Source: Solirubrobacteraceae bacterium (GTDB taxonomy: Bacteria > Actinomycetota > Thermoleophilia > Solirubrobacterales > Solirubrobacteraceae). From it: a stretch of 35,692 bases of DNA. A program made the position numbers and the translations under genes. The stretch covers positions 1 to 35,692 of the forward strand of contig JADGIB010000002.1 of assembly GCA_019683665.1 (NCBI GenBank). The letters run 5' to 3'. The notes under the pieces were generated by a model. The model was not told the DNA's origin and did not search any database. It saw only the letters and a list, made by a program, of their open reading frames with translations. This document shows, in pieces, positions 6,760-10,634 of the stretch. How positions within the stretch are numbered: position 1 is the stretch's first letter; each line of letters begins with the position of its first letter.

Positions 6760-8382
6760 CTACATCATCCCCGACATGTCGGGCATGTTGCCGCCGCCGG
6801 ACTCCTTCTCCGGGATCTCGGCGACGACCGCCTCGGTCGTGAGGATGTTCTTGGCGATCGAGGCCGCGTTCTGCAGCGCCGAGCGCGTGACCATGGCCGG
6901 GTCGATGACGCCGGCCTTGACGAGGTCGACCATCTCGCCGGTGGCGGCGTTCAGGCCCTCGTTGCCCTTGGCCTTGCGGACGTCGTTGACGACGACCGAG
7001 CCCTCGAGGCCCGCGTTGAACGCGATCTGACGCAGCGGCTCCTCGAGCGAGCGCAGGACGATCTTCGCGCCGGTGCGCTCGTCGTCGTCCTCGAACGCGT
7101 CGAGCGAGACGGAGTCGGCCGCGCGCAGGAGCGCGACGCCGCCGCCCGGCACGATGCCCTCCTCGAGGGCCGCGCGGGTCGCCTGCAGCGCGTCCTCGAC
7201 GCGGTGCTTCTTCTCCTTGACCTCGGTCTCGGTGGCCGCGCCGACCTTGACGACGGCCACGCCGCCCGACAGCTTCGCGAGGCGCTCCTGGAGCTTCTCG
7301 CGATCGAAGTCGGAGTCGGTCGTCTCGATCTCGGACTTGATCTGGTTGATGCGGCCCTTGATCGCGTCGACGTCGCCGGCGCCGTCCACGATCGTCGTCG
7401 TGTCCTTGGCGACGACGACGCGGCGGGCGCGGCCGAGCTGCGAGATCTGGGTGTTCTCGAGCTTGAGGCCGAGATCCTCGGTGATGACCTCGCCGCCCGA
7501 CAGGATGGCGATGTCCTCGAGCATGCGCTTGCGGCGATCGCCGAAGCCCGGCGCCTTGACGGCGACGCCGGTGAACGTGCCGCGCAGCTTGTTGACGACG
7601 AGCGTCGCCAGGGCCTCGCCCTCGACGTCCTCGGCGATGATCAGCAGCGGCTTGCCCGACTGGATGACCTGCTCGAGGATCGGGAGGAGGTCACGGACGG
7701 AGCCGATCTTCTGGTTGGCGATGAGGATGTAGGGCTCCTCCAGGACGGCCTCCATGCGGTCCTGGTCGGTGACCATGTAGGGCGAGATGTAGCCCTTGTC
7801 GAACTGCATGCCCTCGGTGAACTCGAGGTCGAGGCCGAACGTCTGGCCCTCCTCGACGTTCACGACGCCGTCCTTGCCGACCTTCTCGATGGCGTCGGCG
7901 ATGACGTCGCCGATCTCCTCGTCGCCGGCCGAGATCGTCGCGACGCGGGCGATCTGGTCCTTGCCGTTGACCTCGGTCGCCTGCGACTTGATGTTCTCGA
8001 CGATCTGGTCGACGGCCTTCTCGATGCCGCGCTTGAGCGCGAGCGGGTTGGCGCCGGCGGCGACGTTCTTCAGGCCCTCGCGGACGATGGCCTGCGCCAG
8101 GACGGTCGCCGTCGTCGTGCCGTCGCCGGCGACGTCGTTCGTCGCCGTCGCGACCTCGCGCACGAGCTGCGCGCCCTGGTTCTGGAAGACGTCCTCCACC
8201 TCGATCTCACGAGCGATGGTCACGCCGTCGTTCGTGATGGTCGGGGCGCCGAACTTCTTGTCGAGGACGACGTAGCGACCCTTCGGGCCGAGGGTGACCT
8301 TGACCGCATTGGCCACGGCGTCCACGCCCGCCTGGAGCGCGTTGCGCGCCTCGGCGTCGTACTTCAGTTCCTTGTGAGCCAT
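6760..8382 (-). CDS. groL: Chaperonin GroEL (Hsp60)
   Basis: 540-residue 60-kDa chaperonin. It forms the double-ring ATP-driven folding chamber with GroES in the cytoplasm. Characteristic segments are [14 protein letters not shown] (nucleotide site, about 29-42), the ATPase motif [16 protein letters not shown] (about 82-97), [21 protein letters not shown], and [15 protein letters not shown]. The C-terminus [12 protein letters not shown] is the canonical GGM-type tail rather than the His-rich tail of actinobacterial GroEL1 paralogues, so this is the housekeeping type. It follows groES by 16 bases; AGGAGA overlaps the groES stop and lies 12 bases before the ATG, a long but usable spacing. Expression should follow the CIRCE-controlled groES promoter. 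Confidence 0.98.
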
Positions 8383-8398: not shown

Positions 8399-8692
8399 CT
8401 AGGACTCGATCTTGGCGAGGACGTCCGACTCGCGGAGGACCAGGAGATCCTCGCCGTCGACCTTGATCTCGGTGCCGCCGTACTTCGAGTAGAGGATCTC
8501 GTCACCCACGGCGACGTCGAGCGGGATGCGCTTCTCGCCGTCCTCGTCGTACTTGCCGTCGCCGACGGCCAGCACCTTCCCCTTCTGCGGCTTCTCCTTG
8601 GCGGTGTCGGGGAGCACGAGACCGCTGGCGGTCGTCTGGTCCTCCTCGATCGCCTGCACGATCAGCCGATCGCCCAGGGGCTTGAGCTTCAT
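8399..8692 (-). CDS. groS: Co-chaperonin GroES (Hsp10)
   Basis: 97-residue heptameric lid of the GroEL chamber. [43 protein letters not shown] is the family N-terminal half with the mobile loop at about 17-32, and [32 protein letters not shown] the second half. The ATG at 8692 is chosen from homologous length and from GGAGGT nine bases upstream; longer in-frame reading would run through the CIRCE operator. It is the first gene of the groES-groEL operon. It has a proper leader with a Shine-Dalgarno sequence, unlike most first genes in this window. Confidence 0.98.
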
Positions 8693-8701
8693 GAGATGTT
8701 G

Positions 8702-8707
8702 ACCTCC
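8702..8707 (-). promoter_or_regulatory. Shine-Dalgarno site of groES
   Basis: GGAGGT on the minus strand, nine bases before the groES ATG. It marks groES as a leadered transcript, consistent with an operator placed in the 5' untranslated region. Confidence 0.8.
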
Positions 8708-8728: not shown

Positions 8729-8755
8729 CTGGCACTCTCGGATCGAGAGTGCCAG
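8729..8755. promoter_or_regulatory. CIRCE operator 1 (HrcA site) upstream of groES
   Basis: CTGGCACTC, nine-base spacer, GAGTGCCAG: a perfect 9-9-9 inverted repeat matching the CIRCE consensus TTAGCACTC-N9-GAGTGCTAA in its actinobacterial GC-rich form. It lies between the likely groES start site and the Shine-Dalgarno sequence. The heat-shock repressor HrcA binds such sites; hrcA itself is not in the window. Confidence 0.93.
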
Positions 8756-8766
8756 ACTCGTGGACG

Positions 8767-8772
8767 ATGCTA
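8767..8772 (-). promoter_or_regulatory. Candidate -10 element of groES-groEL
   Basis: TAGCAT on the minus strand lies between the two CIRCE copies and overlaps the stop codon of the upstream gene. Transcription would begin near 8760, placing CIRCE 1 in the early transcribed region and CIRCE 2 over the spacer/-35 region. No clear -35 is visible. Confidence 0.4.
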
Positions 8773-9522
8773 GCAATCCTGGCACTCTCGGGCCAGGCGT
8801 GCCAGCGGAGTGTCAGGCCCGGGCTCTGCGCCGAGGGGCGCCGGGGAGACCGTGACCGTGACGTCGTAGCGCAGCGTCCCGCGCATCCCGGCCGACCGCA
8901 GCCGCCGCGTCCCCGACGCCGTCAGCGTCACCGGGCCGGCGCGCAGCGCGTCGAGCGTCGTCGTCGCGACCGGCAGCGACCCGGTCGCCTGGAGGTCGGC
9001 CAGGCGCGGCCCGGCGCAGCGGGTCGACAGCGGGTCCTCGGAGCCCTCGATCTCGGCCCCGGCGGCCGCCGCGGGCGACAGGAAGACGACCTCGACCGCG
9101 TCGCCGCTGCGGCGCACGCCGAACGTCGTGACCGTGTGGGCGATCCGGTCGCGGCAGCGCTGGCCGCGGTCGCGCACGCGCGCGACCGTCCGCCCGGCCG
9201 GGTCGTAGAGACCGCCGCCGCCGGCGACGAGGTCGCCCATCGTCACGACGAACGCACCGCCCACCCCGCCCGAGCGGTGGCGGACGCGGCCGCGCAGCCC
9301 GCAGCGCCCGACGCGGCGGCAGGTCGCGCGGTCGCTGCGGAAGTCGAGCCGCAGGGCCGCGCGGGCGTCCTGGGCGAGGAGGGAGATCCCGCCGGCGGCG
9401 GGCTGGGCGTCGGCGGGGACGGGCTCCGGCGTCCCGTCCTGGGCGTGGGCGGCCGCGGGCGCGGCGGCCGCGAGGAGGAGGGTCGTGAGCGCGCCGACGA
9501 TCCGGGTCGATGCGTAGGTCAT
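8770..9522 (-). CDS. Secreted protein of unknown function
   Basis: 250-residue protein I do not recognise. Residues 1-28 form a signal peptide (MTYASTR, then a hydrophobic Leu/Ala run ending AHA), so it should be exported. The mature part is beta-rich in appearance, with Cys at about 68, 74, 123 and 171 that could form disulfides, and ends REC-QDC. The last residues are encoded by the second CIRCE element, so that part of the C-terminus may be shaped by the operator rather than by protein function. The ATG has TAGGCT ten bases upstream. It points toward groES on the same strand, with the groES promoter inside its 3' end; read-through could therefore add to groESL transcription. It diverges from the membrane protein at 9570. 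Confidence 0.7.
8779..8805. promoter_or_regulatory. CIRCE operator 2, inside the 3' end of the upstream CDS
   Basis: CTGGCACTC, nine-base spacer, GCGTGCCAG: one mismatch from a perfect inverted repeat, and exactly 50 bp from CIRCE 1 (start to start). It is wholly within the last codons of the adjacent minus-strand gene, encoding most of its C-terminal [10 protein letters not shown]. Two CIRCE copies 50 bp (about five helical turns) apart could support cooperative HrcA binding. Confidence 0.8.
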
Positions 9523-9569: not shown

Positions 9570-10634
9570 ATGCGGCCCCGCCTGATCCGCCATCCGACCC
9601 GCGACGCCGACGCGATCGCGCTGCTGGAGACCTTCCTCGTCTCCGGCGTCGCGACCGTCCTCGTCATCCGCACCCAGCTGTGGGCGACGAACTACCCGCA
9701 GCTCGGCGGCCACGGGCTCCACATCGCCCACCTCCTCTACGGCGGCATCCTCATGGCGATCACGATCGCCCTGCTGCTCGTCTACCTGAACCGGTCGCTG
9801 CGCCGCCCGGCCGCGGTCCTCGGCGGCATCGGCTTCGGCTTCTTCATCGACGAGCTCGGCAAGTTCATCACGTCCGACAACGACTACTTCTTCAAGCCGG
9901 CGGCGGCGCTCATCTACCTGACGTTCGTCGTGATGTACCTGCTCATCCGCACGTTCGAGCGCCGGCGCGGGCTGACCGAGATGGAGCGGGTCGTCAACGC
10001 GCTCGACCTCGCGGCCGAGGCCGCCCGCCACGACCTCGACGAGCGCGACAAGCAGCGGGCCCTGCGGCTCCTCGACGGCGCCGACCCGTCCGACCCGCTC
10101 GTCGCGCCCGTCCGCGACCTCATCGCCCGGCTCGACGCGCTCCCGCCCCGCCCGCCGCGCTGGCCGGCGCGCACCGCGCTGCGCATCCGCGACGCCTACC
10201 TCGCCTTCTCGCAGACGCCGCTCTTCACCCCGCTCGTCATCGCGGTCATCGTCGGCTGGGGCGTGCTCAGCCTCCTCGTCACCTTCGAGCTCGTGCTCTC
10301 GATCGGCCTGGACCTCGGCGGCGCCCGCCCGGGGGCCGAGAGCGACGCGCTCAGCGACCTGTCGGTCGTCAACTGGCTCAGCCTCGCCTCCTCGACGGCC
10401 TCGGGCGTGCTCGTCGCGGCCGGCGTCGTGCGCCTGCGCCGGGGCCGCGTCGAGGCCGCCTACCGCTCGTTCGAGCGCGCGCTGCTCGTCTCGATCCTCC
10501 TCACGCGCACGTTCTCGTTCGTCGAGTCCCAGTTCGGCGCCGTCTTCGGCCTCGGGATCGACCTGCTGCTGTGGGTCAGCCTCGGGCTCATGACCCGCGG
10601 GGAGCGCCAGCGCGCGAGCGTGGCGGCGGGCTGA
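9570..10634 (+). CDS. Polytopic membrane protein of unknown function
   Basis: 354 residues with about seven hydrophobic segments (near 18-36, 48-72, 80-95, 108-126, 213-242, 268-290 and 308-345). A charged cytoplasmic stretch (127-205) has heptad-like Leu/Ala spacing (MERVVNALDLAAEAARHDLDERDKQRALRLL). The third segment carries a conserved-looking GFGFFIDELGKFIT with acidic residues inside the membrane region. I cannot assign a function; it could be a small-ion transporter or sensor. The ATG at 9570 is chosen because of TACCGT nine bases upstream. Its TGA (10632-10634) directly abuts the stop of the convergent ASCH gene with no base between. Confidence 0.75.
   Translation: MRPRLIRHPTRDADAIALLETFLVSGVATVLVIRTQLWATNYPQLGGHGLHIAHLLYGGILMAITIALLLVYLNRSLRRPAAVLGGIGFGFFIDELGKFITSDNDYFFKPAAALIYLTFVVMYLLIRTFERRRGLTEMERVVNALDLAAEAARHDLDERDKQRALRLLDGADPSDPLVAPVRDLIARLDALPPRPPRWPARTALRIRDAYLAFSQTPLFTPLVIAVIVGWGVLSLLVTFELVLSIGLDLGGARPGAESDALSDLSVVNWLSLASSTASGVLVAAGVVRLRRGRVEAAYRSFERALLVSILLTRTFSFVESQFGAVFGLGIDLLLWVSLGLMTRGERQRASVAAG

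What the first reader, a model, noticed from the sequence alone, without database searches (positions are those of the whole stretch)
8729..8805. Tandem CIRCE operators exactly 50 bp apart, one inside the neighbouring coding region
Operator 1 is a perfect 9-9-9 CIRCE before groES; operator 2 has one arm mismatch and lies entirely within the last codons of the upstream secreted-protein gene, so operator and protein C-terminus share DNA. Spacing of 50 bp start to start is about five helical turns, which suits cooperative HrcA binding or a loop enclosing the TAGCAT -10 element between them. A protein tail constrained by a repressor site is an uncommon overlap.
Basis: partly seen in the sequence, partly recalled or inferred. 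Interest (0 to 1): 0.5.

Follow-up and report, generated by a model that had tools for sequence, protein, structure and literature searches.

The report
Paired CIRCE operators around groESL promoter
Two copies of the standard heat-shock repressor site (CIRCE, bound by HrcA) flank the promoter of the chaperonin operon groES-groEL; this pairing is widespread in related bacteria and so ordinary, and the overlap of one site with the end of a neighbouring gene looks like an accident of a newly arrived gene.

Summary
A perfect CIRCE (8729-8755) and a one-mismatch CIRCE (8779-8805) lie 50 bp apart upstream of groES-groEL. They are the only sites in the genome with at most one core mismatch, and hrcA is present. 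Operator 2 lies wholly inside the last codons of an upstream gene, whose TAG stop forms half of the TAGCAT -10 hexamer.

This is a standard HrcA/CIRCE groESL promoter with paired operators. In the window's family, 62 of 77 genomes (21 of 24 genera) have two CIRCEs there, with a -10 candidate between them. Spacing is not fixed: 48-80 bp, mostly 71-72. Paired groES CIRCEs are already published for Bifidobacterium.

The constrained-protein-tail idea is not supported. All three congeners have operator 2 but lack the secreted-protein gene at this locus. The tail loses coding composition and aligns with no homologue found. It looks like an inserted gene reading into a pre-existing operator.

One loose end: across genomes the upstream operator sits about 35, 45, 57 or 68 bp before the -10, roughly one helical turn apart. 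This is suggestive but not statistically secure.

The parts
8729..8755 (.). CIRCE operator 1, perfect palindrome, in the predicted 5' leader of groES
   Evidence: 0 mismatches; perfect in all four species of the genus
8779..8805 (.). CIRCE operator 2, one mismatch, covers the predicted -35
   Evidence: a second CIRCE is present in all three congeners and 62 of 77 family genomes
8767..8772 (-). -10 hexamer TAGCAT; its first three bases are the stop codon of the upstream gene
   Evidence: sequence; a -10 at the same place in congeners: TAGGAT, TAATCT, TACGAT
8791..8796 (-). predicted -35 (CTGGCC, weak) in the 9-nt loop of operator 2, 18 bp from the -10
   Evidence: position matches TTGAGC/TTGAGT/TTGTGC in congeners; not found by the strict consensus scan
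8703..8707 (-). GGAGG ribosome-binding site of groES
   Evidence: sequence
8399..8692 (-). groES (97 aa)
   Evidence: Pfam Cpn10, E 2e-33
6760..8382 (-). groEL (540 aa)
   Evidence: Pfam Cpn60_TCP1, E 7e-78
8770..9522 (-). gene of a predicted secreted protein, 250 aa, no Pfam family; its last codons contain operator 2
   Evidence: third-position GC about 1.0 up to about codon 228, then about 0.7

Best explanation
This is the HrcA/CIRCE-controlled promoter of groES-groEL with paired operators, as in most of its family. At normal temperature HrcA dimers occupy both sites. Operator 2 covers the -35 region and operator 1 covers roughly +5 to +32, so RNA polymerase is shut out on both sides of the -10. 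On heat shock HrcA loses activity and the operon is expressed; the operator-1 hairpin may also protect the mRNA leader. The overlap with the secreted-protein gene is incidental: that gene came to lie between a divergent neighbour and a pre-existing operator 2, and its frame reads through the operator to a stop that falls in the -10. Shown: the sites, their genome-wide uniqueness, conservation of the pair and of the promoter placement, presence of hrcA, and absence of the gene at this locus in congeners. Inferred: HrcA binding, occlusion, heat release, and that insertion rather than loss explains the gene's distribution.
For: Only two strong CIRCE sites in the genome, both here. hrcA present. 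Two CIRCEs in 62 of 77 family genomes and 21 of 24 genera, with 1 hit in 1540 shuffled 400-bp regions. -10 between the operators and, in short-spaced genomes, -35 in the loop of operator 2. The same layout at 45-47 bp in other actinobacteria. Congeners lack the secreted-protein gene at this locus and have a homologue of the 9570-10634 membrane gene divergent from groES. Tail without coding composition or homology. Strong leader hairpin, z -4.0.
Against: No binding or expression data. The window's -35 (CTGGCC) is weak and its operator 2 has a mismatch, so repression or promoter strength may differ from relatives. The gene's absence in congeners could in principle be loss rather than gain in the window's lineage.
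Confidence: 0.9

Rival explanations
1. Dual-use DNA: the C-terminal [11 protein letters not shown] of the secreted protein is functional, so that operator and protein tail constrain each other.
For: Operator 2 really is inside the reading frame.
Against: The best homologue aligns only to residue 235 and other homologues end differently. Third-position GC drops to about 0.7 in the tail. The operator is conserved in genomes without this gene.
Confidence: 0.04
2. Operator 2 is helically phased so that HrcA bound there contacts or traps RNA polymerase, or binds cooperatively with HrcA at operator 1, rather than merely covering the -35.
For: Operator-2 to -10 distances fall in classes near 35, 44.5, 57 and 68 bp; R is 0.77 at an 11-bp period over 42 genus-level units. 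Shifts between classes occur within genera g22 and g25.
Against: Only four classes: randomly placed class centres score as well in about 24% of trials. Operator-to-operator distance is not significantly periodic. Clashes between the -35 and operator arms could also create classes. Genera are not independent.
Confidence: 0.2
3. Operator 2 is decaying in this species and only operator 1 is functional.
For: One mismatch here and two in congener G002, while operator 1 is perfect in all four species of the genus.
Against: Perfect in congeners G001 and G003. Over the family, operator 2 is perfect in 53 of 62 and operator 1 in 54 of 62, so operator 2 is not generally the weaker site.
Confidence: 0.15

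Closest known systems
Bifidobacterium groES promoters with two CIRCE sites (PMC9004370)
   Same: Two CIRCE elements upstream of groES in an actinobacterium, hrcA present.
   Different: Reported there as motif counts; exact spacing and promoter overlap were not compared here, and no coding overlap is described.
Streptomyces groES/EL1 and groEL2 under HrcA (PMC2687793; genomes of genus g91 look like Streptomyces by size, an inference)
   Same: HrcA-controlled groES operon; g91 genomes have two CIRCEs 47 bp apart, TTGACC in the upstream loop and the -10 between.
   Different: Spacing 47 instead of 50 bp, stronger -35, CTAA-type outer arms in the upstream operator.
Lactococcus lactis dnaK operon with two CIRCEs overlapping its promoter (PMC1676014); Lactobacillus plantarum hrcA with two CIRCEs (PMC3842655)
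   Same: Paired CIRCE elements at one chaperone promoter.
   Different: dnaK/hrcA operons of Firmicutes, not groESL.

Membership tests
HrcA/CIRCE operator | Inverted repeat with GCACTC-N9-GAGTGC core (consensus TTAGCACTC-N9-GAGTGCTAA) | tested here: met
   Core exact in operator 1 and one mismatch in operator 2. The outer arm bases are CTG/CAG instead of TTA/TAA, as throughout the family.
HrcA/CIRCE operator | Located at a chaperone operon promoter (groESL) | tested here: met
   groES and groEL directly downstream
HrcA/CIRCE operator | hrcA gene in the same genome | tested here: met
   PF01628 match E 9.5e-44, over the cut-off, contig C21
HrcA/CIRCE operator | Position overlapping promoter or early leader | tested here: met
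   Predicted -35 in operator 2, -10 between, operator 1 in the leader; same in relatives. Transcription start not measured.
HrcA/CIRCE operator | HrcA binds and represses, released by heat | not testable with these tools
   needs footprinting and expression assays
Cooperative or looping repressor pair | Conserved helical spacing between the two operators | tested here: not met
   48-80 bp in the family, periodicity not significant
Operator constrained by protein coding (dual-use DNA) | Conserved protein tail encoded by the operator | tested here: not met
   Gene absent at the locus in congeners, tail not homologous to any homologue's tail

The most novel reading that the evidence does not exclude
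The upstream CIRCE of the pair is kept on one face of the helix relative to the -10 (classes near 35, 45, 57 and 68 bp), because HrcA bound there contacts or traps RNA polymerase rather than only blocking the -35.
Probability: 0.15. Interest if true: 0.45.

Novelty: new member of a known kind. Interest (0 to 1): 0.2.

Why it matters
Paired CIRCE operators enclosing the groESL promoter turn out to be the rule in a whole actinobacterial family, with a natural series of spacings that could be used to test whether HrcA acts by plain occlusion or by helically phased contact with RNA polymerase. The coding overlap is only a small example of a gene landing next to, and reading through, an existing operator.

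Tried and rejected
The classical TTAGCACTC consensus with up to 3 mismatches found nothing, because this lineage uses CTGGCACTC arms. The strict sigma-70 scan found nothing, because the -35 is weak; the promoter was placed by comparison with congeners. A fixed 50-bp (five-turn) spacing was rejected. Joint constraint on the protein tail was rejected. The automatic -10 caller misassigned two promoters: G015 (corrected by limiting the distance to operator 1) and L045 (read by eye, TAAAAT at +56 pairs with TTGACA). In one search the membrane gene was translated in the wrong frame; the hits still locate its homologues, but the identities there are not meaningful.

Full report
WHAT IS THERE. Both CIRCE elements are at the stated place: operator 1 at 8729-8755 (perfect) and operator 2 at 8779-8805 (one mismatch), 50 bp start to start. 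Up to 3 mismatches, two sites were found against 0.03 expected. Over the whole assembly (3.56 Mb, 435 contigs, 96% complete) no other site has fewer than two mismatches in the 14 core bases, so the predicted HrcA regulon in this assembly is groESL alone. hrcA is present. Downstream are groES (8399-8692) and groEL (6760-8382). The upstream co-directional ORF (8770-9522, predicted secreted from its N-terminus, no Pfam family) contains operator 2 as codons 240-248, and its stop TAG is the first half of the -10 hexamer TAGCAT.

PROMOTER ANATOMY. Aligned with its congeners, the window reads: operator 2, 6 bp, TAGCAT, operator 1 starting 17 bp after the first base of the -10, then GGAGG and ATG. The congeners have TTGAGC, TTGAGT or TTGTGC as -35 in the 9-nt loop of operator 2, 17-18 bp from the -10. 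The window has CTGGCC there, a weak -35. Transcription would start near 8760 (inferred), so operator 1 lies in the leader at about +5 to +32. As RNA it folds into a 12-bp hairpin with a 3-nt loop (leader -31.4 kcal/mol, z -4.0). Roles of CIRCE in mRNA stability in B. subtilis and Rhodobacter capsulatus are cited in PMC3207917.

CONSERVATION. I read the DNA upstream of groES in 123 genomes of the same order, the window's included. In the window's family 62 of 77 genomes have two CIRCEs within 400 bp, 13 have one and 2 have none; 21 of 24 genera have at least one genome with two. Shuffled upstream regions gave 1 hit in 1540. Other families of the order mostly have one (f2: 15 one, 7 two; f3: 20 one; f4: 4 one). 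Record titles of near relatives name Solirubrobacteraceae, Conexibacter and Solirubrobacter. In a phylum-wide sample of 397 genomes, 45 have a pair 27-57 bp apart and 4 a pair 58-88 bp apart, by exact core match; a class-wide sample of 399 has 64 with the wider pair. Several other actinobacterial groES loci show 45-47 bp with TTGAC in the loop.

SPACING. In the family the operator-to-operator distance is 48-50 (11 genomes), 59 (4), 65-67 (2), 70-76 (39) and 78-80 (6); periodicity near 10-12 bp is not significant. The operator-2 to -10 distance is much more clustered: 32-36, 44-45 and 54-60 in the family, and about 35-36, 43-45, 55-59 and 68 when other families and phyla are added. Shifts occur within genera: 57 versus 35 in g22, and 57 versus 45 in g25. 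At genus level R is 0.77 for an 11-bp period (42 units), but with only four class centres a random placement does as well in about a quarter of trials. Avoiding a clash between the -35 and the operator arms could also create classes. This is a lead, not a result.

THE CODING OVERLAP. The three congeners (G001, G002, G003) have both operators but not the secreted-protein gene at this locus; a homologue of the membrane-protein gene at window 9570-10634 sits divergently next to groES. In three other genera (L095, L096, L097) the ASCH-domain gene lies next to groES. So in the window's lineage the secreted-protein gene lies between the membrane-protein gene and operator 2, most simply by insertion. 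Its third-position GC is about 1.0 up to about codon 228 and falls to about 0.7 at the end. The best homologue (G001, elsewhere in that genome) aligns only to residue 235, and the other homologues end differently. A screen for coding-like frames entering operator 2 shows that most upstream genes in the family end before it. Two frames end partway into it (G031, G110), and three frames of genus g12 (G034, G111, G129) run through it with an ambiguous coding signal that I did not resolve; the window is the clearest case of a gene running right through. The tail is best read as run-through into a pre-existing operator.

LITERATURE. Two CIRCE sites upstream of groES are listed for Bifidobacterium breve, B. 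longum and B. adolescentis (PMC9004370). Two CIRCEs overlap the promoter of the L. lactis dnaK operon (PMC1676014), and two precede hrcA in L. plantarum (PMC3842655). HrcA controls groES/EL1 and groEL2 in Streptomyces (PMC2687793). Paired CIRCE promoters are therefore a known kind.

VERDICT. Observation confirmed; interpretation partly supported. This is an ordinary HrcA/CIRCE groESL promoter with paired operators, a new member of a known kind. The coding overlap is real but most likely incidental.

Noticed in passing
L244, and genomes G720, G762, G752, G126, G027, G043, G056 (genus g25): In these promoters operator 2 is about 11 bp closer to the -10 than in other members of the same genus; in G720 and G762 a TTGACA lies only 6 bp from TATAGT, as if one helical turn had been deleted between -35 and -10.
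   Followed up: partly
families f2 of the order, for example L139, L144, L122, L142: Some genera have two CIRCEs almost abutting (28-30 bp start to start), with a TGCTAGAGT-like -10 inside the upstream operator: a different paired layout.
   Followed up: no
table, for example G022:C13:36463-36747 and G054:C8:74529-74804: Many relatives carry a second, distant GroES-like match (about 40% identity) besides the CIRCE-controlled groES.
   Followed up: no
8770-9522, and L087, L088, L089, L090: The secreted protein belongs to a sparse family without a Pfam model: 5 of 101 genomes searched (the window's included) have a match.
   Followed up: partly
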